Translations under genes and position numbers: made by a program
In this document: in pieces, positions 488 through 12,597 of the stretch
How positions within the stretch are numbered: position 1 is the stretch's first letter
How the letters are laid out: each line of letters starts with the position of its first letter
The notes under the pieces: generated by a model
Seen by the model: the letters and a program-made list of their open reading frames with translations, nothing else
Database searches by the model: none
Told to the model about the DNA's origin: nothing
DNA from: Photobacterium indicum
GTDB lineage: Bacteria; Pseudomonadota; Gammaproteobacteria; Enterobacterales; Vibrionaceae
Direction: 5' to 3'
Assembly (NCBI RefSeq): GCF_003026215.1
Contig: NZ_PYOC01000001.1
Location: 1,116,001 to 1,180,000 of the forward strand
DNA: 64,000 nt

Positions 488-645
488 GATGAAGCCTCCG
501 CAAAGCTTGTAGGTTATCCGCAAAGAAGGGAGAGCCTATTGTAGAGAATATCTCCATATCTAAAGGTTATAAGGGGTATAACAAGCGCTTGGCTATTACC
601 CGTTTTAAAATCGGTCTACTTATTAAGTTCGAAAGTAGGTGCAAT

Positions 646-1968
646 ATGTTGATTACTCAAGGTCCGCAGTTTAATGGCAAGGTATCCAAGCGATTACATG
701 TGATGGCAAAACCGATTGGAGCAGCATGTAATATTGATTGCACTTACTGTTATTACCTGAGCAAGCAGGATCTGTTGGAGTATAAAAAGGGGTGCTCTCC
801 ACGAATGGATGAAGACACGCTGGAAACGTATATCCGTCAATATATTGAGGGACAAAATACCGCAGAAATTATCTTTTCTTGGCAAGGTGGCGAACCAACA
901 ATGCTAGGGCTCGACTATTTCAGAAAAATTGTTGAGCTTCAAAAAAAGTATAAGCCTGAAGGCATCATTATTTCCAATGATTTACAGACCAATGGCACGT
1001 TACTTAATGATGAGTGGTGTGTATTTCTAGCCGCCAATAATTTCCTTGTTGGATTGAGTATTGATGGCCCAGAAATGCTACACAATGCCTATCGTACTAA
1101 CCGTGCTGGTCGTGGAACATTTAAACAGGTAATGATGGCTGTTGAATTACTGCATAAGCACCAGGTTAAATTTGCCACTTTAACCTGTGTTAATAACTTA
1201 ACCAGCAAGAACCCACTAGATGTTTACCGTTTCTTGCGTGATGTGGTGAAGTCACCCCAGATGCAATTTATTCCGATAGTAGAACAAAAGACATTTCGAA
1301 CGACTGCTCCACAGAAGTGGAAGTCTCAAGAGCAGCTGCGCCAAGGGGATAAAAAACTTAACCCTTGGCATAAGAATTCGGTTGTTGAACCTTGGTGTGT
1401 ATCGGCTGATGCATGGGGTGATTTTCTGATCGCCGTGTTTGATGAGTGGATTAAACAAGATATTGGTAAAGTATTTGTGCAGTATTTTGAAGCCAGTGTC
1501 GAGACATGGATGGGGCGAAAAAACCCGCTTTGCACCTTAGGTGAAATATGTGGCAAAGGGTTGGCAATGGAGCCTAATGGCGATGTCTATACCTGTGATC
1601 ATTATGTCTACCCTGATTACCAAGTCGGTAATATCCATCACAAGAACATCGATGAAATGGCGTATTCCGAATCACAGAAAACATTCGGTTTTGCAAAGTC
1701 ACGAACATTAACTAGCCAATGTCAGCAGTGTGAGTACCAGTTTGCCTGTTATGGCGAATGTCCTAAAAATCGCTTTATTCGCACCAAAGAAGGCGAACCA
1801 GGATTAAATTATTTATGCGCAGGTTGGAAGAAATTTTTCAGCCACGCAGATAAGTCGTTGGCTTATGTGTTGCGTGCATCGGGCTACCCTGTTGCTCATG
1901 GTAAATATAGCGATGAGGTGATACGACAACAAGGTCAACGCTTCCCACAATTTCCAACTTGTTTTTAA
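646..1968 (+). CDS. Anaerobic sulfatase-maturating enzyme (radical SAM/SPASM)
   Basis: This 440-residue protein fits the anSME family, which oxidises a Cys or Ser of a sulfatase to formylglycine without oxygen. The radical SAM cluster motif CxxxCxxC is at Cys28, Cys32 and Cys35 (CNIDCTYC). The C-terminal third carries the SPASM cysteines that hold two auxiliary 4Fe-4S clusters, including the run CxxCx5CxxxC (CQQCEYQFACYGEC) and a later Cys in 'LNYLCAGW'. An in-frame TTG at 589 would add 19 residues. The ATG at 646 is preferred because family members start about here and AGTAGG lies just upstream. No sulfatase is visible in the window, so its substrate is presumably encoded outside. It is followed by a HEAT/TPR gene after only 15 bases, which suggests an operon. 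Confidence 0.9.
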   Translation: MLITQGPQFNGKVSKRLHVMAKPIGAACNIDCTYCYYLSKQDLLEYKKGCSPRMDEDTLETYIRQYIEGQNTAEIIFSWQGGEPTMLGLDYFRKIVELQKKYKPEGIIISNDLQTNGTLLNDEWCVFLAANNFLVGLSIDGPEMLHNAYRTNRAGRGTFKQVMMAVELLHKHQVKFATLTCVNNLTSKNPLDVYRFLRDVVKSPQMQFIPIVEQKTFRTTAPQKWKSQEQLRQGDKKLNPWHKNSVVEPWCVSADAWGDFLIAVFDEWIKQDIGKVFVQYFEASVETWMGRKNPLCTLGEICGKGLAMEPNGDVYTCDHYVYPDYQVGNIHHKNIDEMAYSESQKTFGFAKSRTLTSQCQQCEYQFACYGECPKNRFIRTKEGEPGLNYLCAGWKKFFSHADKSLAYVLRASGYPVAHGKYSDEVIRQQGQRFPQFPTCF

Positions 1969-4382: not shown

Positions 4383-5279
4383 TTAGTAATGCCAAGGAAA
4401 ACGGCTGAAGTCTTGATCTCGTTTTTCCAAAAAGGCATCACGGCCTTCTTGTGCTTCTTCGGTGCCATAGGCTAGACGAGTTGCTTCACCTGCAAATAGT
4501 TGCTGTCCGACTAAGCCATCGTCAGACATGTTGAAACCGTATTTAAGCATGCGCATCGCGGTTGGTGATTTGCTATTGATCTCTTTAGCCCAAACAAGTG
4601 CTTCATTTTCAAGCTCAACGTGTTCAACAACCTTATTGACCATACCCATGTCATAAGCTTCTTGTGCGCTGTAGTTAAAACCACAGAAGAAGATTTCACG
4701 AGCACGTTTCTGGCCAATCATCTTGGCAAGGTAAGCCGAACCGTAGCCTGAGTCAAATGATGCGACATCAGGATCTGTCTGCTTGAATACAGCGTGTTCT
4801 TTTGATGCAAGAGTTAAGTCACACACTACGTGTAAACTATGGCCACCACCTACTGCCCAGCCTGGTACGACAGCAATGACTACTTTTGGCATGAAACGAA
4901 TCATACGCTGAACTTCAAGGATATGCAGGCGACCCATGCGAGCAACATCCGCTTTGCCTGCTTCTTCACCTTCGTATTTGTATCCGTCTTTACCTCGGAT
5001 ACGCTGGTCTCCACCGGAAGAGAATGACCATTGGCCTTTTTTCGACGGACCATTACCGGTTAGCAGTACACAGCCAACATCAGACGTTTGGCGAGCATGG
5101 TCAAGGGCTGTGAAAAGTTCATCTACGGTTTTTGGGCGGAATGCATTCAAGCAATCAGGACGGCTGATTGCAATACGAACCGTACCGTGTGCTTTAGCGC
5201 GATGATAGGTGACGTCTTCAAAATCAAAGCCAGGGACTTCATCCCATAGTTCAGGATTAAAAATTTCTTTGCTGGTCAT
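4383..5279 (-). CDS. menB: 1,4-dihydroxy-2-naphthoyl-CoA synthase, type II (Asp-containing)
   Basis: The 298-residue crotonase-fold enzyme closes the second ring of menaquinone's naphthoquinone by converting o-succinylbenzoyl-CoA to DHNA-CoA. MenB hallmarks are present: 'SSGGDQRIRG', 'GWAVGGGHSLHVVCDLT', 'SFDSGYGSAYLA', 'SPTAMRMLKYG' and the C-terminal 'EGRDAFLEKRDQDFSRFP'. The segment 'KQTDPDVASFD' carries Asp where E. coli MenB has Gly (QTGPKVGSFD). From family knowledge this marks the bicarbonate-independent type II group typical of actinobacteria. The ATG at 5279 is chosen (GAGG upstream) over a 29-residue upstream extension that lacks homology. No other men gene is adjacent, so the rest of the pathway must be elsewhere. 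Confidence 0.92.
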   Translation of the reverse strand: MTSKEIFNPELWDEVPGFDFEDVTYHRAKAHGTVRIAISRPDCLNAFRPKTVDELFTALDHARQTSDVGCVLLTGNGPSKKGQWSFSSGGDQRIRGKDGYKYEGEEAGKADVARMGRLHILEVQRMIRFMPKVVIAVVPGWAVGGGHSLHVVCDLTLASKEHAVFKQTDPDVASFDSGYGSAYLAKMIGQKRAREIFFCGFNYSAQEAYDMGMVNKVVEHVELENEALVWAKEINSKSPTAMRMLKYGFNMSDDGLVGQQLFAGEATRLAYGTEEAQEGRDAFLEKRDQDFSRFPWHY

Positions 5280-5562
5280 GATTACGATTGCCTCATTGGT
5301 TAGATGAGACAAGGCTATGGCGTTTGCGCTAAATGTCAATGATTTATGAATAAATATGACAGTCATTATAAGGATTGTTTGGGGCTGGCTTATTATTCAA
5401 GCAGATCCATCCTGAACACTCCGTATTAAAATAATAAGGGTTTAGTTCGATCTATATGGAATGCATATAAATTATATCGCAGTAAATGACCTATGGTGAT
5501 TGGCTCCAGCTTGTTATCTTTTATACTGTAATCATACCCAGCCGAGCCAATGACATTCAAAC

Positions 5563-6171
5563 TTATCCCACAGGCCTTTCATCCTCAGGGCGAGAGTTGT
5601 AACTATCGACAAGTTTATTGAGGAAGTATTGACCTGCTGACGTTAAAATCAGATTGTTATGGTGGTTATAAAAAGCGATGTTTCTTTTTACCAGAAAGCT
5701 CAATGCATCCTCCCAATTTTCTAGCTTACATGCTTTTAGAATATCAAGTGATTCACTTTGTGCTTTTAAATAAATGAGATCGTTGTCATCAATCCCGTAT
5801 TGGATAGAGGATAGATGCTCAAGGTTAAATCCACGGCGGGTAAAGATGCTACCGAGAAGAATCAATGTTGCTTGTATTTTCAAAGCCGTTGCATCGGATT
5901 CGTCTTCATCTAAATCTAGACCGCGGATATAAAAAAAATCACCTTCAGGCTCAAAAACCAACTTAGATCCAATGTGGCTATATAAGGTTGTGTAGTGATC
6001 TAGATGGTTAAATAATGACTGATAAAGATGCGATTCTGTATAAGAGCCTGTGCCATTATTAAATAGAAATTTTGTGATGACCTTACCGGCTTGAAAGGCT
6101 TTGTATACATTTCGGCTATCCTTTGCGCTTACAAGGTCAAAACTACTGAAACGTTGATGTTCATTTGTCAT
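5563..6171 (-). CDS. Wadjet/Mks-like MukE-type subunit (JetB-like)
   Basis: The 202-residue acidic protein is the last gene of the four-gene SMC operon. It contains a segment typical of MukE/MksE/JetB winged-helix proteins: 'YTESHLYQSLFNHLDHY', 'IGSKLVFEPEGDFFYIRGL', then helices and a basic C-terminal winged-helix stretch. In condensin-like complexes this subunit binds the kleisin. The ATG at 6171 is preferred (GGGAGA at about -10) and overlaps the upstream stop by 11 bases, implying translational coupling. The identification rests on size, fold-like pattern and operon position. Sequence similarity to known JetB is weak by eye. Confidence 0.7.
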   Translation of the reverse strand: MTNEHQRFSSFDLVSAKDSRNVYKAFQAGKVITKFLFNNGTGSYTESHLYQSLFNHLDHYTTLYSHIGSKLVFEPEGDFFYIRGLDLDEDESDATALKIQATLILLGSIFTRRGFNLEHLSSIQYGIDDNDLIYLKAQSESLDILKACKLENWEDALSFLVKRNIAFYNHHNNLILTSAGQYFLNKLVDSYNSRPEDERPVG

Positions 6172-7579
6172 TATTGCTTTCTCCCTGAGATCCAAAACGT
6201 ACTACTTGGTAACGGTATGCTTGTTGTCCATCAGCAATTTTTCTGCGCTTTAATGTTGTAACAATGTTATTACGTGTCGTTTTGAAACGGTTGATAACTA
6301 ATAGCAGATCCGTGAGCTGGTAGGTTAAGTGATGGCTCGATAGCATGATACTCAGGCGAGGGTGAATATGGGCATGAAGATCAGGCGTATCAACTAATCG
6401 CATTTTATCTGCTATTTCTAGAATAAGGCTGTCACGTCTGAGACGATTGGTTTGTGTCCGGTTAATTGTTGCAGAATCGGCTTGCCCGATAGTAAATGAC
6501 ATCAATTTTGCATCATCAATACGCAGTTGTAGCTGACGCCAAAAACCATCAAGGTAGCTTTCTGTTGAAAATATATTTAGACGTTTTGGTTGATTTTTTG
6601 AATTGTTTTTAAGCCCAAGCACGAAATCATTATTTTTAACCCATGACGATGAATCTTGAATATAGAATCGATTGAGTCGTTTCGTTAATGTCTGTGAATA
6701 CTCTTCTTTTAGAGCGCGGTATGCTGCTTCCATCGCATTGTATTCTCTGACCGTTCGGTGGTTCTTTCTGAGAAAAGCCTGGACTTCACGATTACATTGT
6801 TCGATAGGTTGGTAACTTTGAAGTAGATTTAGCCCCAGCAGTAAAAGATCATTGGCATCTTCATAACGTTGGTGGCTTTCGAATTTTTCTCTAATGCTAT
6901 CGATGACTTGATGAAGGTTTCCTTTGTCTACGGTGTAATGCGGGTCAAGAAATTGAAGGGCCGGAGTAATGGAACGGAGCGATAGCTGGCTCGCTTCGCG
7001 AAACATTGTCAGCTTATTTTCGATGAAGTTTTGTTCAGACTGGGTGGTTTCTTTTGCAATCTGGCTTAATCGCTGGGATAGCTGTTTCATTTTTAGCTCA
7101 TTTGAACGTAGCTTACTGCGTATTTCGACGATATGCTCAAAGATGAACTGTCTGGTTTCTCGAAAATCATCATTTTGATCGCTAAATGATAAGTTATCTA
7201 ACGCGTTCCGAAGCTCCTTTAAGCGGCTTAACATCGCTTTAAACTCAATATCACTGAGCTCTTTTACCAGCTCACTGTTACATAGCCGTAATAAGGTGAT
7301 TAAAGAGGGCTGAAAAACCATGACGCCTTCGCCTAAGTGCAAGTCAGCAAGAAGATTTGCTTGCTGTAAGTTCTTTACACTGAAGGCAATATTCACTCTT
7401 CTTTTTTCTGATTCATCTTGATTCACATAGCGGCGGATATAATCGGCCAACATCAGTTCGTAGCGATGAATTAAGATATTGTTATGGCCACGGCTATCCA
7501 TCAACGTGATAATGCGGTCCATTAGCTGTACATGATCAAAAAGGATCTTGGTCGTTGTTAGGGTATCAAAGTGTTTCAT
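6161..7579 (-). CDS. Wadjet/Mks-like kleisin subunit (MukF/JetA-like)
   Basis: This 472-residue protein has a predicted helical N-terminal domain ('KILFDHVQLMDRIITLMDSRGHNNILIHRYELMLADYIRRYV'), a long central coiled region (about residues 160-210) and a basic C-terminal winged-helix-like part. That architecture matches MukF, MksF and JetA. It would bridge the heads of the SMC dimer. The start ATG at 7579 has AGAGG just upstream and overlaps the SMC gene's stop by 14 bases. A longer version from 7621 would add 14 residues lying wholly within the upstream gene. No catalytic motif is expected or seen. The operon context makes the assignment stronger than the sequence alone. Confidence 0.68.
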   Translation of the reverse strand: MKHFDTLTTTKILFDHVQLMDRIITLMDSRGHNNILIHRYELMLADYIRRYVNQDESEKRRVNIAFSVKNLQQANLLADLHLGEGVMVFQPSLITLLRLCNSELVKELSDIEFKAMLSRLKELRNALDNLSFSDQNDDFRETRQFIFEHIVEIRSKLRSNELKMKQLSQRLSQIAKETTQSEQNFIENKLTMFREASQLSLRSITPALQFLDPHYTVDKGNLHQVIDSIREKFESHQRYEDANDLLLLGLNLLQSYQPIEQCNREVQAFLRKNHRTVREYNAMEAAYRALKEEYSQTLTKRLNRFYIQDSSSWVKNNDFVLGLKNNSKNQPKRLNIFSTESYLDGFWRQLQLRIDDAKLMSFTIGQADSATINRTQTNRLRRDSLILEIADKMRLVDTPDLHAHIHPRLSIMLSSHHLTYQLTDLLLVINRFKTTRNNIVTTLKRRKIADGQQAYRYQVVRFGSQGESNNDK

Positions 7580-10565
7580 CGATGACCTCTGCGTGAGAGA
7601 TGTGTTCATCGAATTTCGCATCTTCAGTTAATTGCATTTCAGGATCATCTAAAGGGGCTAGTGACTCCAATGCGCCCCAATATACGATGCGCCGTTCCTG
7701 ACTAAAGAATTTGTCTGCTTGTATATCTCCAATATTGCAATGGTTTCCAACCGCAGCAATAACATCAACACCGACGGCCCGGGTTGAAGCGCAAAAGAGT
7801 GTAAAGCCTCTTGTTTCAGCTTCTTTTAAAACCGGAGGGATTTGGGGCGGATCGATAGTTGGCAGTTCATCCATAACATAGGGGATATGGTATTTAACGC
7901 CGGGCTTGAAGAGCCTTTGCATCAGATATTGAACTATCGCCAGCGTCGTCAGGCTGGTTGTACTATTGCTCTGTGGCTTATCTAGCCAACGTTCTGAACC
8001 GATAATTTTATAGCTGATATCAACATTCAGAATGATGTCTTCAAGTGTTAATGTCTGGCTTTCTCCTCGGGAGAAAAATTCTTGGCAGAAGTTAACCAAA
8101 CTGCGGTAGAAACTCTCTCCCAGTGATTTTTCCGCATAAAAGTCGACCGCCTGTATCTCCGAAACCAGTTTTTTGAACCGGTTATCGAGGCTGATGGAAA
8201 ATTTCAGACCAGATAAGTTATTGATATTGGTTTCGTTGAGCTCTTGATTGAGGTTTCGTTGGAAATGCTCAATTAATGTCACGTTATCAATCAGCGTTTG
8301 TGTTTTTGTATTGAGCAGGTGGTTATGTTCGGTATAGGCGTGCTTTAACGCCGTTTTCTTTTCTGGAAGCTCGCGATAAACCAGCTGTAGCGATTCCATG
8401 CCTTCTTTAACATGTTGCCCGCTTGGCGATTGGCTCATGGCAATACGATGTGGATCGTGAATAATTTGCTGTTCAAAGAATACCCGTAATCCATTCAGTA
8501 CGTTTTCTCTCAGTTTCCTTGCCTGTTCAATATCGTTTTCCAATGTCTCAACAAGCTCTTTCGTTGGTGAACATGGCGTCGCTAAGGCATGTTCTTCATA
8601 TAGCCGACCTTCCTGGTATTTTTGAAGATGAGCCAACGATGTCACAATGGCATTTATCTCATCAGATTGCTTCAATAAGAGTGTTTGAGCATTTTGATAT
8701 TTTTTGTGTGCAGCGTCAGTTTTTGTCACCTGACTTTGACCATCAATTATTTTTTGTTTTGCATCAGTAAATTGCTTTTCAGCTTCAATCAGGTGTTCTT
8801 TTTTATCGTGGAGATCTTGACGGGTTTGCTGAATGCCATTTAATAACCCTAAGTCATTTCTCGCTTCCGTAACTTCACGCTTCAGTTTATTCAGAACATT
8901 TGCGGGCTCAGACTGATACTGCTGTATATCAACGATTTGGTTGTTACAGTCTTGTAGTTTTCTTTCAAGAGAAGCAATGTTTTTTTGCAGTTGTTTTTTT
9001 GTGCTGAAGGGGTGTTTTTTCCAATATTGTTGGTGAAAGGAAATTTGTTCATTATCAACGTTAAACAATTCGCTAAAATGTTCAATTTTAGGTATCGCCA
9101 GGTGTAACTCCTCGTCAGACAATACTTCTATCAACATATCGGGAATTAATGTCGCGATAACGTCTTGGGCATGAGGTGTCAGGTGGCTGCCAAGCAGGCG
9201 GTTGATGTGCTCAATTTTCTCATTCTCTGCAAAAATCTTGTTTTTAAAATCTTCTCTGTTTTTTTGTAGTTCCAGCCTTCGATGTGCATTATTTACATTT
9301 TCTTGCAGAACGGAAAGGCGCTGCTCTCTCTCTTGCCGGTACTCTTCAAGGATCAGAATGACTTCTTTTATTTGTGTGCCGGGATACTGTGCGCAAATGG
9401 CGTTTACCTTATCAACGCGTGATCTGAATAATTGAATATCTCCTTTAATGCCTTTGCCGTTATTTGCCCGATCTCCGTTGTTACCTATGGTTATTTCTAG
9501 CTCTTTAGCTTGAGTACTTATTCGCGAGAGGTTTTGTTTCGCCTGTTCAAATGCTTCATTGCTGTGAAAGACCTTTTCTGCAAGTGGTTTGCTTTTTTCA
9601 TTCAGCGTTTGCGCTAGTTTTCGTGCTGAAAATAACAAGCTGTTCCAGCGAATATTGATATCATGCAGACGATTTAAGTTGTTGTATTGCTGAAGTACAA
9701 GATTATATTTATCTTCTAACCCCTCAACATTAGCAATATAAGCAGTATCTGATTCTAAGCGGCGGTGCTCTTCTTCGATAGCTTCAAGATCGAGTTCAAG
9801 GTTATCGGTTTCATCCCGCTTTGATGCTTCAATTAACGCTGCAATTGATTTTGCCAGCTGCTTTCCATCGGTCGTATCTTCAAACATCATATGGGTCATG
9901 GTGCGCAAAGCATTGAGTGTCGAATAATCTACTTTTTTGAGAGGCAACAGCGCGAAGCGTCCCGTTTCTGGATCTAAAGCACGTTCAGGGTAGAGAAGCT
10001 GACTCACCTGATCGCGATTTTGAGCATGTTCTGTTCCCGGATACTTTTTCTTTAGTTGTTCTCGCATCAATGTTGGTGAAAATTGTGCTTCGGGGCAACC
10101 ACAATCACCTAGAGATTTATTCCAGATAAAAGGCGAAATGGCATCTAATCGGGCGGGAACAAACAAGCGTTCATAACGGAGAGCGCCGCGTCCCACAAAC
10201 AGTATCTGGCAGTGATAACCAAAGGCATTCTCTACTTCTAAAATTAACATGGAGTTGGCGGCAGGAAAGTAGAACGAATGGCTTTGCTCACCGGAGTAGT
10301 AGCCAGATTTATGTGCAAACCGAAACTTTTTTTCGGCTTTTTTTAACGAGTCCTCAGGAAGCAGAAAGAGTTTTAGCGCCTGAAGTGCTGCGGATTTTCC
10401 TGTATTCCCTGGCGCAATGAGCAGCATATGTAAATCAAGGGGAAGTTCACAATAGCAATAACCAGCACTATCAATTAAAGCAATACGTACCGGTCCAAAG
10501 GCATCACCTTGCTCCCCTAAGCCATCAAGGCCTAATTGATCTTCACTGTGTATCAGAGTTGTCAT
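7566..10565 (-). CDS. SMC/MukB-like ATPase of a Wadjet-type system (JetC-like)
   Basis: The 999-residue protein has an ABC-type head split by long coiled coils. The Walker A is at about residues 51-58 (APGNTGKS). Coiled-coil stretches run from about 270 to 460 and 530 to 680, around a globular region that could be the hinge. The signature region is at about 860-872 (QSNSTTSLTT) and the Walker B at about 896-905 (YVMDELPTID). The signature lacks the usual paired glycines (LSGGQ), a notable divergence. It is shorter than MukB (about 1480) and within or below the usual size for JetC/MksB proteins. In Wadjet this motor extrudes DNA loops and licenses cleavage of small circular plasmids. The start overlaps the preceding toprim gene by 4 bases (ATGA). 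Confidence 0.82.
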   Translation of the reverse strand: MTTLIHSEDQLGLDGLGEQGDAFGPVRIALIDSAGYCYCELPLDLHMLLIAPGNTGKSAALQALKLFLLPEDSLKKAEKKFRFAHKSGYYSGEQSHSFYFPAANSMLILEVENAFGYHCQILFVGRGALRYERLFVPARLDAISPFIWNKSLGDCGCPEAQFSPTLMREQLKKKYPGTEHAQNRDQVSQLLYPERALDPETGRFALLPLKKVDYSTLNALRTMTHMMFEDTTDGKQLAKSIAALIEASKRDETDNLELDLEAIEEEHRRLESDTAYIANVEGLEDKYNLVLQQYNNLNRLHDINIRWNSLLFSARKLAQTLNEKSKPLAEKVFHSNEAFEQAKQNLSRISTQAKELEITIGNNGDRANNGKGIKGDIQLFRSRVDKVNAICAQYPGTQIKEVILILEEYRQEREQRLSVLQENVNNAHRRLELQKNREDFKNKIFAENEKIEHINRLLGSHLTPHAQDVIATLIPDMLIEVLSDEELHLAIPKIEHFSELFNVDNEQISFHQQYWKKHPFSTKKQLQKNIASLERKLQDCNNQIVDIQQYQSEPANVLNKLKREVTEARNDLGLLNGIQQTRQDLHDKKEHLIEAEKQFTDAKQKIIDGQSQVTKTDAAHKKYQNAQTLLLKQSDEINAIVTSLAHLQKYQEGRLYEEHALATPCSPTKELVETLENDIEQARKLRENVLNGLRVFFEQQIIHDPHRIAMSQSPSGQHVKEGMESLQLVYRELPEKKTALKHAYTEHNHLLNTKTQTLIDNVTLIEHFQRNLNQELNETNINNLSGLKFSISLDNRFKKLVSEIQAVDFYAEKSLGESFYRSLVNFCQEFFSRGESQTLTLEDIILNVDISYKIIGSERWLDKPQSNSTTSLTTLAIVQYLMQRLFKPGVKYHIPYVMDELPTIDPPQIPPVLKEAETRGFTLFCASTRAVGVDVIAAVGNHCNIGDIQADKFFSQERRIVYWGALESLAPLDDPEMQLTEDAKFDEHISHAEVIDETL

Positions 10566-11377
10566 TCATTATCTCCATGATTTAAGGTGAGCAGCATTTC
10601 TTGTTCCATAAACTGTTTTGTGTGTCGAAATAGCGTTACCAGAGGAAGGAAGTTATATTTTTCTGCGGTTTTAATTGCTGATGCCAGACGGTTATCGCTT
10701 TCAGGAGAAAGAAGAAAACACTCTTTAAGTAGTGCTGCGTTATCTGGCAATACGAAGTTTGTGTTAGGGCATTGGCGTTCTATACCTGAATAGGTAGTGA
10801 GTCCTCCAAGATCGTAATCGAGTAGAAAGGCACAGCGTTCATAGCGTTGATAAAATGGCATAAATAACTGATTTGCAGCGCCGTTGCCTTCTCCCATTGC
10901 GACATCCCAATCTTTGATATCCCAATGATCATTGGTCATATAGTTCAAGGCTTCGAACGTTTGTTGTAGTTGAAAAAAAAGTGCACGGTTTTCAATAACA
11001 AGTAACGAATTTACCTTGCCTGTTTTTTCTAGATTTTCAGTTTCATGCTGTTGGTCTTTACAAAAAACGACCGTGGTCAATTCACCATTATGAGCGGTAC
11101 GAAGAAGCAATGGCGCAAAATCGACCCGTACCAGATGGCTGTTTCCTCGTTTTGCTGCATCTACTCGACTGGTTGGTGCAACGGACTCCGCTTTTAATTG
11201 TTCATAAATTGACAGATTTTTGGGAGTCAGATGCCATTTGAACTTAGATACCTTTTCAATCGCAAAAAGGTCATGCAATCGATGTTGATATTGCTTAGGA
11301 AGGATCTGATGAAATGTATTGAGGTTAACAGGGGAGCCAGCATCAATCTTCTTAAGGTAAAGGTTTATTCGGCTCAT
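10562..11377 (-). CDS. Toprim-domain nuclease-like protein (JetD/MksG-like), first gene of the operon
   Basis: The 271-residue protein has a short N-terminal domain (about 1-115) and a C-terminal toprim-like fold. The toprim acidic residue is Glu129 in 'SLLVIENRALFF', a glycine-rich 'MGEGNGA' loop is at about 161-167, and the DxD motif is Asp187-Asp189 in 'FLLDYDLGG'. Such an E...DxD set is what JetD/MksG, topoisomerase VI A and related nucleases use to bind Mg2+ and cut DNA. It is shorter than the JetD proteins I know (about 350-420 residues). Here it leads the operon, whereas in described Wadjet operons it usually comes last. A clear Shine-Dalgarno is missing before its ATG. Confidence 0.75.
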   Translation of the reverse strand: MSRINLYLKKIDAGSPVNLNTFHQILPKQYQHRLHDLFAIEKVSKFKWHLTPKNLSIYEQLKAESVAPTSRVDAAKRGNSHLVRVDFAPLLLRTAHNGELTTVVFCKDQQHETENLEKTGKVNSLLVIENRALFFQLQQTFEALNYMTNDHWDIKDWDVAMGEGNGAANQLFMPFYQRYERCAFLLDYDLGGLTTYSGIERQCPNTNFVLPDNAALLKECFLLSPESDNRLASAIKTAEKYNFLPLVTLFRHTKQFMEQEMLLTLNHGDNE

Positions 11378-12030
11378 ATGTTATTCGAAACTTATGCTAA
11401 ATCACACATTGGTCAATTTAATATACACATTTCAGGCGTGAGCAGAAATGTACGGAGTTGTTTTAATCGACACATGTCTGATTTATAAATATTTTATTGT
11501 TTTTTCCAAGCCGTTGAGGTGATTATTAGTTCTATCTGTGTGATGGGTAAAGAGACGCTCGTAAATCATCAACAGAAAGCATGCGGACACTAGAGTTGAA
11601 TGCAACGTTATGGAATACCAATATTCAAAATTTGATTCGCTTGATGGATAAAAAACAAATTGCCATCACTCAAGAAACAATGGTTGCCAGATCGTTACCA
11701 CTAACAACCATCAGCATAAATTAAAACAGATAAGGCTGTAATTCGGCTAAATTCTCAATCACTAATTGCTGCTGATAGCGTGCAGAGACTCGTCTACAGT
11801 GCCTTGGTTTTGCCGTTAATTGGTCAGGCCTAATGAAGATGCCTTTGGGGATAACGAATACATTAATATCACTCCTGATGTTCAATATATTAAAAATCCT
11901 GCGTTATTGTCTGATTCAGATACTTAGTTAGTTGGCATTAGAGCAAGTATTGCGATCTAATGTTAGTTAGACATATGTAAGCCGTCGGTAGTATCATGAT
12001 TCAGTCCTTAAGGTTTCAATCGGTACAGAA
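11378..12030. other. 653-base non-coding region with gene debris upstream of the SMC operon
   Basis: The left part (about 11378-11520) is AT-rich and must hold the promoter of the minus-strand SMC operon. No convincing -35/-10 pair could be fixed. At 11581-11724 (+) a 47-codon open frame encodes a stretch resembling the first helices of an XRE-type HTH repressor ('NLIRLMDKKQI', 'LPLTTISIN') and then stops. On the minus strand, 11721-11885 is a 54-codon frame from a TTG with no recognised match, rich in Arg ('KPRHCRRVSARYQQLV'). Both look like truncated remnants. Calling them relics is an inference from their length and abrupt ends. Confidence 0.4.
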
Positions 12031-12597
12031 ATGAACTCAACGCTTCTTCTTGATATAACGACCCACGCTTTATTACACATTGAATTTTGTAACCTTGATA
12101 AAAAGCTAACCATTACAGAACGAAACATCAAACTAAATCAATTTTTAAAACGCGCTATTAAATCCAATCGTTACAAACGTATTAAAAAGAACATTAAGCA
12201 GTGGTTAACGATTGCCAAACTTAACGATGGACTGGAATTGTTACTCTTGTCTGAGCAGAAGAAACTTATCGAAAATTGTTCGAGTGATATGCATCGCTTT
12301 GTTGAACTGATCAGCATGATAGAATCTCAGCTAGCGACGAAAGTTCAGTTCGCTAATGCACGTGAACTTGATTTGCAGGCACGGTTTGGTCAAGTGCTTG
12401 TCTGTGTGATTGAGTCTGATTTACAAGCTATTTTTGACGAGGAAGGGTTGATGGTCAAAACAACTCAAATATTATTCGTCGGTTCACCAGAATATAAAGA
12501 TATATTTTCAGAGCAGATTGATAAAAGTGCTCACTTCCAATCAGTACTCGCATACGAAGACGAAACGCATTTACGAATTGAGCTTTGTAGGTTGTAA
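12031..12597 (+). CDS. Hypothetical protein next to the Wadjet-like operon
   Basis: I do not recognise this 188-residue protein. It is predicted mostly helical in its first 120 residues, with a lysine-rich stretch (about 30-60) and no signal peptide or membrane segment. The C-terminal 60 residues look alpha/beta. It has no cysteine cluster or nucleotide-binding motif. The start ATG lacks a strong Shine-Dalgarno (AAGG lies about 20 bases upstream). It stands alone between gene debris and a terminator, pointing away from the SMC operon. A functional link to defence is possible only by position. Confidence 0.55.
   Translation: MNSTLLLDITTHALLHIEFCNLDKKLTITERNIKLNQFLKRAIKSNRYKRIKKNIKQWLTIAKLNDGLELLLLSEQKKLIENCSSDMHRFVELISMIESQLATKVQFANARELDLQARFGQVLVCVIESDLQAIFDEEGLMVKTTQILFVGSPEYKDIFSEQIDKSAHFQSVLAYEDETHLRIELCRL

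What the first reader, a model, noticed from the sequence alone, without database searches (positions are those of the whole stretch)
5563..11377. Wadjet/MksBEFG-like operon with gene order D-C-A-B
Four overlapping genes encode a toprim protein, an SMC-like ATPase, a MukF-like and a MukE-like subunit, in that order of transcription. Described Wadjet (JetABCD) and Mks operons usually place the kleisin and MukE-like genes first and the toprim nuclease last. All junctions overlap by 4-14 bases, so the four subunits are coupled. The small toprim subunit and order suggest a variant class of plasmid-restricting SMC system.
Basis: partly seen in the sequence, partly recalled or inferred. Interest (0 to 1): 0.75.

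Follow-up and report, generated by a model that had tools for sequence, protein, structure and literature searches.

The report
Flipped-order plasmid-cutting SMC operon
This is a four-gene bacterial machine of the Wadjet/Mks kind, probably a plasmid-destroying DNA motor with its own DNA cutter, from a little-described branch whose complete operons keep an unusual gene order and which can trade places in genomes with other machines of the same kind.

Summary
Window 5563-11377 (minus strand) holds four intact, overlapping genes in the order JetD-like toprim (D), SMC ATPase (C), MukF-like kleisin (A), MksE-like KITE (B). The order is a lineage trait: 48 of 53 related loci hold all four genes and all 48 are D-C-A-B (36 distinct), as are 2 later ones. 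In two short MAG contigs no D lies upstream of C. ATPase-head trees give one clade (99/97) apart from type I Wadjet and Mks operons, in which D follows C wherever I could tell. D keeps the MksG/JetD metal site and EQE motif, C its Walker motifs, and A models as MukF. PADLOC and NCBIfam do not call the system. Short D is not special. Beyond the finding: the cassette trades places with other SMC cassettes. In the window it took the place of a C-B-A-D operon, of whose nuclease gene a remnant stays; in four Vibrionaceae loci it sits between the same WYL regulator and type I restriction gene as an Mks cassette does elsewhere. Plasmid restriction is inferred, not shown. Wadjet type III order could not be checked. 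New variant of a known kind.

The parts
10562..11377 (-). D: JetD/MksG-like toprim nuclease, 271 aa
   Evidence: AlphaFold model pLDDT 91.4; best PDB matches C. glutamicum MksG 8b7f Z 13.7, 153 aligned, 3.3 A, and TopoVI-A; E129, N130, E258, Q259, E260 in 29 of 29 and D187 in 28 of 29 rows
7566..10565 (-). C: SMC/MukB-like ATPase, 999 aa
   Evidence: Walker A N54, G56, K57 in 23 of 23 rows, position 58 S in 6 and T in 17, Walker B D899-E900 in 23 of 23; profile match to Mks ATPases 99.7%, to type I JetC 98.3% over the C-terminal part
6161..7579 (-). A: MukF-like kleisin, 472 aa from the ATG at 7579 (longest frame starts at 7621)
   Evidence: AlphaFold model pLDDT 76.8; top PDB match MukF 1t98 Z 14.6, 158 aligned, 2.9 A; junction
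5563..6171 (-). B: MksE-like KITE subunit, 202 aa from the ATG at 6171 (longest frame from TTG at 6195)
   Evidence: Pfam MksE E=2.8e-15; junction
11525..11721 (+). Remnant of another SMC operon: pieces of the toprim gene of a C-B-A-D system (its residues 123-142 and 244-293 of 293)
   Evidence: tblastn of L200 D: residues 244-293 at 92% identity (E 1e-23), residues 123-142 at 70% (E 1e-4)
5450..11927 (.). Interval missing from G085, where 36 bp lie between the same flanks
   Evidence: window 5449 aligns to L205:12533 and window 11928 to L205:12496
4383..5366 (-). Left flank: enoyl-CoA hydratase gene (not part of the system)
   Evidence: Pfam ECH_1 4e-48
12031..12597 (+). Right flank: DUF2913 gene (not part of the system)
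   Evidence: Pfam DUF2913 9.3e-37

Best explanation
A Wadjet/Mks-group SMC nuclease of a separate D-C-A-B clade. C (ATPase), A (kleisin) and B (KITE) most likely form a MukBEF-like motor that loads on DNA and extrudes it; D dimerises through its toprim domain and cuts once the motor has run round a small closed circle, so that small and medium plasmids are destroyed and the chromosome and very large plasmids are spared. Shown here: the four intact genes, conserved catalytic motifs, predicted folds of D and A, the order, one clade, defence genes near relatives, and cassette exchange with other SMC operons. Inferred from work on type I Wadjet and MksG (PMC10586767, PMC10123090): loop extrusion, circle sensing, cleavage. 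In the window the operon is an acquired cassette that took the place of a C-B-A-D operon. That D-first order tunes the dose of the nuclease, and that the WYL protein found beside many relatives represses the cassette, are guesses; the window copy has no WYL gene.
For: Fold of D matches MksG, TopoVI-A and JetD; profile match of D to type I JetD pairs E129-N130 with its invariant E-N and D187/D189 with its invariant D/D, and both end in an invariant EQE. A matches MukF, B is MksE, C is an Mks-like ATPase. Order D-C-A-B in all 48 loci with four genes, of 53, plus 2 of 2. One clade, 97/96 and 99/97. The host also has MukB, 1488 aa frame, so this is not its housekeeping condensin. Flanks of relatives: 82 chosen proteins match 262 PADLOC families at 1e-10, among them BrxL, PglZ, GajA and type I/III/IV restriction enzymes, against 2 families for 36 other window proteins. 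Exchange with an Mks cassette between the same WYL and HsdR genes. The two plasmid-borne copies found lie on plasmids of 320 and 599 kb, above the ~100 kb limit reported for Wadjet (PMC10586767, passage).
Against: No activity data. A gives no profile match to type I (0.5%) or Mks (0.4%) kleisins; B matches type I JetB only at 9%. D hits Pfam JetD_C below its cut-off. D is shorter at the N-terminus than type I JetD, so control must differ. In L049 and L078 no D was found upstream of C; the neighbours there are a histidine kinase and a cytochrome c gene and the downstream ends run off the contigs, so D is lacking or elsewhere in some relatives. The window copy has no defence gene among the neighbours scanned beyond two weak PADLOC matches and no WYL trace, and its nearest ATPase is 36% identical over the head columns. 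Two plasmids are too few to argue from size.
Confidence: 0.75

Rival explanations
1. The same machine works mainly against phages or other mobile DNA rather than small plasmids.
For: Flanks of relatives include BrxL, PglZ, GajA and restriction enzymes; in several Vibrionaceae loci a type I restriction hsdR gene is the neighbour.
Against: The JetD/MksG systems described in the passages read act on plasmids (PMC10586767, PMC10123090); D and A have the folds of that kind.
Confidence: 0.15
2. It is an accessory condensin that organises the chromosome, as MksBEF does in P. aeruginosa, and D is incidental.
For: C is closest to Mks ATPases; P. aeruginosa MksBEF takes part in chromosome packing and segregation (PMC7485682, passages); L049 and L078 show no D upstream of C.
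Against: D is present in 50 of the 53 loci plus 2 of 2 (absent or unseen in L044, L049, L078) and its active site is kept; patchy spread, 15 other full-length hits among 247 family genomes; MukB is present; cassette exchange with other SMC-nuclease operons.
Confidence: 0.08
3. It is only a reshuffled member of a named type (Wadjet III or plain MksBEFG) and the order is trivial.
For: Operon organisation is known to differ among Wadjet types (PMC12647877, passage); C-B-A-D shows that orders vary.
Against: The order is kept across one well supported clade; C is about 980 aa against 1472-1473-position JetC3 models, and type III is described as tending to longer coiled coils, with exceptions (PMC12647877, passage); Mks operons form their own clade at 100/100.
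Confidence: 0.15
4. The window copy is a decaying, silent relic.
For: No WYL gene, promoter-like sites at chance level; long branch in the trees; the C-B-A-D remnant shows decay at this site.
Against: All four frames are intact with overlapping starts and the catalytic residues counted are present.
Confidence: 0.1

Closest known systems
MksBEFG-type operons with a ~930-aa ATPase (Vibrionaceae and a Polaromonas plasmid here)
   Same: Long profile match of the ATPase (99.7%), MksE-like KITE, short toprim D, and in several Vibrionaceae the same divergent WYL regulator; HsdR neighbour in L040
   Different: D after C in 17 of 17 loci; A-B before C in the 12 loci listed, A there judged by size and place; kleisins give no profile match; separate clades
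Wadjet type I (JetABCD; C. glutamicum MksBEFG, P. aeruginosa PA14, E. coli GF4-3)
   Same: Four subunits of the same kinds; D toprim fold and E/D/EQE residues
   Different: Order; D open frames about 380-490 aa with a longer N-terminal part; complete ATPase frames 1107-1223 aa; no detectable kleisin similarity
Wadjet type II (TIGR02680/DUF2398/DUF2399)
   Same: Subunit kinds; the A model also matches a chain of the N. vireti Wadjet-II JetABC entry, Z 9.3, rmsd 30 A
   Different: In the one locus seen DUF2398 gene, ATPase (1392 aa) and DUF2399 gene follow in that order, with a 519-aa frame before them, presumably A
C-B-A-D operons (DUF3584 ATPase, MksE-like, kleisin-sized protein, DUF7281 toprim)
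   Same: SMC plus KITE plus short toprim; occupies the window's site in G099
   Different: Order C-B-A-D in 16 of 16 checked, A judged by size, and in L200; own clade at 100/100; ATPase 1220-1272 aa
MukBEF
   Same: A models as MukF
   Different: MukBEF lacks the nuclease (PMC7617805, passage); the host has a separate MukB

Membership tests
Wadjet/Mks group (JetABCD sensu lato) | SMC ATPase with Walker A and B, MukB-like | tested here: met
Wadjet/Mks group (JetABCD sensu lato) | MukF-like kleisin | tested here: met
   By predicted fold only; not by sequence profile
Wadjet/Mks group (JetABCD sensu lato) | MukE-like KITE subunit | tested here: met
   Pfam MksE 2.8e-15
Wadjet/Mks group (JetABCD sensu lato) | Toprim nuclease of JetD/MksG fold with metal site | tested here: met
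Wadjet/Mks group (JetABCD sensu lato) | Cleaves circular DNA / restricts plasmids | not testable with these tools
   Needs bench work
Wadjet type I | Gene order A-B-C-D | tested here: not met
   D-C-A-B
Wadjet type I | ATPase groups with type I in a head tree | tested here: not met
   DCAB clade 99/97 apart from 15 rows that I labelled type I from profile scores
Wadjet type II | TIGR02680 ATPase and DUF2399 nuclease | tested here: not met
   No such hits for C or D at E up to 1
Wadjet type III | JetC3/JetD3 model match and type III operon order | tested here: inconclusive
   Only weak PADLOC hits (JetC3 1e-3 over residues 490-772, JetD3 4e-3); no type III locus found (rang nowhere)
MksBEFG with ~930-aa ATPase | Order mksFEBG | tested here: not met
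MksBEFG with ~930-aa ATPase | ATPase homology over most of the length | tested here: met
   99.7% profile-profile, 824 columns

The most novel reading that the evidence does not exclude
D-C-A-B is a fourth, unnamed Wadjet-group architecture, and SMC plasmid-defence systems of different architecture are interchangeable cassettes: one swaps for another as a unit, sometimes under the same WYL regulator beside the same restriction enzyme, sometimes leaving a scar of the ousted nuclease. This would predict that plasmids evolve type-specific escape and that hosts turn over whole motors in answer.
Probability: 0.5. Interest if true: 0.7.

Novelty: new variant of a known kind. Interest (0 to 1): 0.52.

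Why it matters
The defence and annotation models tried here miss this clade: PADLOC and NCBIfam give only weak or partial hits, and both plasmid records name the genes hypothetical. It adds a divergent, compact version (median ATPase 979 aa, nuclease 264 aa) on which the need for the longer JetD N-terminal part and for long coiled coils in circle sensing can be tested. The cassette exchanges offer natural pairs in which one motor was traded for another at a fixed site.

Tried and rejected
Rejected: small D as the hallmark (also in Mks and C-B-A-D groups). Rejected: a one-off rearrangement. Searches that led nowhere: PDB by sequence profile for all four subunits, only coiled-coil, P-loop or chance hits; phages, no match, and viral contigs, 78 pattern hits but no relative; JetC3 family scan of 249 genomes, swamped by coiled-coil-like matches; JetD3 scan, no hit in 249 genomes or in the controls; promoter and terminator counts at chance level; repeats at the insertion borders, nothing convincing.

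Results against my reading or dropped from counts: of the 53 loci, five lack one or more genes. L044 starts within 26 bases of C; L058 and L068 run off the contig after A and within C. But L049 and L078 have 1.7 and 9.9 kb of sequence before C and no D there (of L078 the last 2.6 kb were scanned); the preceding genes look like a histidine kinase and a cytochrome c. Their operons are cut at the other end, so D may be last or missing. They were not in the trees. I found this only on re-checking; it makes 'always D first' too strong but changes none of my odds. The 48 include L037, whose D is split in two frames, L051, whose B is cut, and L021, with two small genes between C and A. Twelve pairs among the 48 are the same gene fetched twice, hence 36 distinct. 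The genome-contig scan rests on two short peptide patterns, so the list of hosts is a lower bound. In the class scan with the kleisin model 5 of 303 genomes matched; two (G622, G727) are short matches and were discounted. In the JetD_C survey I inspected 32 of the 44 listed places; 5 of the 32 had no ATPase in the stretch (L146, L148, L154, L166, L168), and one of the 12 left out (G697) is itself a D-C-A-B locus. The sisterhood of D-C-A-B and Mks is weak (85/69) and long branches meet in both trees. G085 may be a deletion rather than a never-filled site: its 36 bp resemble sequence downstream of the C-B-A-D operon (my reading). The flank survey used 82 of 184 listed flank ORFs, chosen by me, from a mechanical list that holds some spurious frames, so the contrast with the 36 control proteins is descriptive. 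In one search the Mks ATPase profile seed wrongly included an HsdR fragment (L042:2-2779), and the profiles had absorbed Mks members; neither was used for the trees. L064 was dropped from the first tree (no Walker A regex match) and added to the second; type II row L172 was left out of the second.
Full report
WHAT IS THERE. Four intact genes lie on the minus strand of window 5563-11377: D (271 aa), C (999 aa), A (472 aa from the ATG at 7579) and B (202 aa from the ATG at 6171). The junctions overlap by 4, 14 and 11 bases, with Shine-Dalgarno-like sequence before C, A and B (my reading).

SUBUNITS. Database models barely see the system: Pfam JetD_C hits D at E=0.0036, below its cut-off, MksE hits B at 2.8e-15, and A and C have no informative Pfam hit. 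The best PADLOC hit is 1e-3, and in NCBIfam the head of C hits the Mks ATPase model at 2e-7 and B the MksE model at 0.015. Sequence profiles find no relative in the PDB, only coiled-coil, P-loop or chance matches. Structure settles it. The D model (pLDDT 91.4) matches C. glutamicum MksG (8b7f, Z 13.7, 153 aligned, 3.3 A), topoisomerase VI-A (Z about 12) and P. aeruginosa JetD (Z 10.3), mostly over residues 85-268. The A model (pLDDT 76.8) has MukF as its best match (1t98, Z 14.6, 158 aligned, 2.9 A); ranks 1-8 are all MukF, MukEF or MukBEF entries, and a Wadjet-II JetABC entry follows at Z 9.3. Helical bundles give high Z easily, so the run of eight MukF-type entries at the top, rather than the Z itself, carries the argument. 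Profile comparison of D with 13 type I JetD proteins (probability 94%) pairs E129-N130 and D187/D189 with their invariant E-N and D/D, and both families have an invariant EQE near the end. In the D alignment E129, E258 and E260 are present in 29 of 29 rows, D187 in 28 of 29, and position 189 is D in 22 and E in 7. In MksG, mutation of E236 or D279 impairs cutting and E349/E351 are named as alternative nucleophiles (PMC10123090, passages); that E258/E260 answer to E349/E351 is my inference from spacing and motif. In C the Walker A lysine and Walker B D-E are present in 23 of 23 rows.

A LINEAGE WITH A KEPT ORDER. A search of 247 genomes of the family found 34 with a match to C; 16, the window's own among them, match over nearly the whole length (the other 15 at 25-27% identity), 16 match the head only and 2 a coiled-coil stretch. 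All 15 others carry D-C-A-B, one with D split. A scan of the genome-contig collection with two short peptide patterns found 36 loci, by record title Photobacterium, Vibrio, Aliivibrio, Enterovibrio, Halomonas, Billgrantia, Marinobacter, Marinobacterium, Nitrincola, Pseudomonas, Sessilibacter, Thioalkalivibrio, Oleiphilaceae, Thiotrichaceae and two MAGs named only as Gammaproteobacteria. Two plasmid records carry it, of 598,737 bp (Photobacterium damselae) and 320,197 bp (Methylophaga thalassica). Over these 53 loci, 48 hold all four genes, and all 48 are D-C-A-B on one strand (36 distinct ATPases). Of the other five, three are cut by a contig end on the side of the missing gene (L044, L058, L068), but in two MAG contigs, L049 and L078, enough sequence lies before C and no D is there; the genes before C look like a histidine kinase and a cytochrome c. 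Both contigs end inside the operon, so D may be last or missing. Two further members from a class-wide sample of 303 genomes are D-C-A-B.

BASELINE. Among 32 of 44 places found through JetD_C in 274 genomes of the class, plus one locus from the TIGR02680 set, D follows C in all 25 where profiles found both on one strand; in three more (L169-L171) the JetD_C-hit frame also follows C; five had no ATPase in the stretch. One of the places I left out, G697, proved to be D-C-A-B. The one clear type II locus has DUF2398, ATPase and DUF2399 genes in that order. Mks loci with a ~930-aa ATPase have D after C in 17 of 17. A third arrangement, C-B-A-D with a DUF3584 ATPase and DUF7281 toprim, holds in 16 of 16 Vibrionaceae loci checked, A being judged by size, in L200, and by gene sizes on an Azospira and an Acinetobacter plasmid. 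Trees of ATPase heads give one clade each for D-C-A-B (19 rows, 97/96; 20 rows with MukB added, 99/97), Mks (100/100) and C-B-A-D (100/100), apart from type I. Nearness to Mks is suggested (85/69) and fits the long profile match (99.7%), but the kleisins of the two groups give no profile match (0.4%).

CASSETTE EXCHANGE. The window operon stands between an enoyl-CoA hydratase gene and a DUF2913 gene. In the relative G085 only 36 bp lie between the same flanks (L205), and G085 has a D-C-A-B operon elsewhere. In G129 a PTS transporter gene is there (named from its sequence by me). In G099 the site holds a complete C-B-A-D operon (L200), and the window keeps the last 50 codons of that operon's toprim gene at 92% identity plus a 20-codon piece (11525-11721, plus strand). 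So a D-C-A-B cassette has taken the place of a C-B-A-D one. A second case is cleaner. In L028 (the same operon as Vibrio ezurae L054) the D-C-A-B cassette lies between a divergent WYL-domain gene and a type I restriction hsdR gene; in G211 (L040) an Mks cassette lies between the same two genes. The flanks align at 81% and 79% DNA identity and nothing between them aligns at E 1e-10. L031, L033 and L077 show the same two-sided match to L040; L026 matches on both sides but only over 155 bases on one; L032 matches on the hsdR side and L029 on the WYL side only. The WYL proteins of D-C-A-B and Mks loci are up to 91% identical, so one regulator seems to serve either motor.

COMPANY. A WYL gene of this family lies near 11 of 30 D-C-A-B loci surveyed. 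Of 82 flank proteins scanned, PADLOC matches at 1e-10 include WYL, type I, III and IV restriction enzymes, BrxL, PglZ, GajA and AriA (262 families in all, 25 listed); 36 other genes of the window match 2 families. The window copy itself has no WYL trace nearby.

HOW IT PROBABLY WORKS. By analogy with type I Wadjet and MksG (PMC10586767, PMC10123090, passages read), C-A-B loads on DNA and extrudes it in an ATP-driven cycle, and D, held inactive until extrusion of a closed circle is complete, makes the double-strand cut. What is particular here is inferred: D has only about 85 residues before the part that aligns with MksG from residue 216 on, so much of the N-terminal region in which autoinhibition of type I JetD is placed is missing, and control must come from the complex or from expression. 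The host's own MukB (1488-aa frame) covers chromosome duty. The plasmid-borne copies sit on replicons far above the roughly 100 kb limit reported for Wadjet (PMC10586767, passage), as the model expects, but there are only two.

WHAT IS KNOWN. Wadjet has three described types that differ in sequence and operon organisation (PMC10586767, PMC12647877, passages), and the mksFEBG order is reported as conserved (PMC10123090, passage). A 2025 survey of the Wadjet group asked for co-directional MksB, MksF and MksE hits with an optional flanking MksG hit (PMC7617805, methods passage); D-C-A-B operons would fit its size limits, so its supplementary list, which I could not read, may contain them. My searches of the held library listed no paper whose title or abstract start describes a D-C-A-B order; no paper was read beyond the passages found. 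Doron 2018, Deep 2022 and Petrushenko 2011 are not held.

VERDICT. Real, kept across a clade and under-annotated; a new variant of a known kind rather than a new kind. The gene order alone is of modest interest; the separate compact clade and the whole-cassette exchange between SMC systems are the better finding.

Noticed in passing
L200:5543-12053 (G099) and L226-L240, L243: A C-B-A-D operon family (DUF3584 ATPase, MksE-like, kleisin-sized protein, DUF7281 toprim), another Wadjet-like architecture that PADLOC sees only weakly; a DUF7281 scan matched 41 of 247 family genomes, among them also Mks toprims.
   Followed up: partly
L246 (NZ_CP026423.1, Acinetobacter sp.): A C-B-A-D-sized operon sits on a 40,249-bp plasmid, well under the size that Wadjet is reported to spare; self-immunity or a different target range would be worth testing.
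   Followed up: no
L049:1-1736 and L078:7500-9977: Two relatives of C with no D gene upstream; a histidine kinase and a cytochrome c gene stand there instead.
   Followed up: partly
NCBIfam NF040857 and NF040859 against L023 and L040: The model named MksB (412 aa) hits the kleisin-position gene and the model named MksF (926 aa) hits the ATPase, the reverse of the names used in papers.
   Followed up: no
L028, L031, L033, L077, L032 and L040: A divergent WYL regulator, an SMC cassette and type I restriction genes form a shared island in which the SMC cassette type varies (L032 matched on the hsdR side only).
   Followed up: partly
L037:10873-11633 (G053) and L043:6932-9549 (G113): Broken copies: D split in two frames in L037, the Mks ATPase split into two frames in L043.
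   Followed up: no
L021:10926-11700: A DUF5406 gene and a small unknown gene are inserted between C and A of the plasmid-borne operon.
   Followed up: no
L022:12896-16996: A 1366-aa protein with PIN-related domains follows the Methylophaga plasmid operon.
   Followed up: no
window 589-1968: A radical SAM/SPASM protein with a weak viperin-model match, probably unrelated.
   Followed up: no
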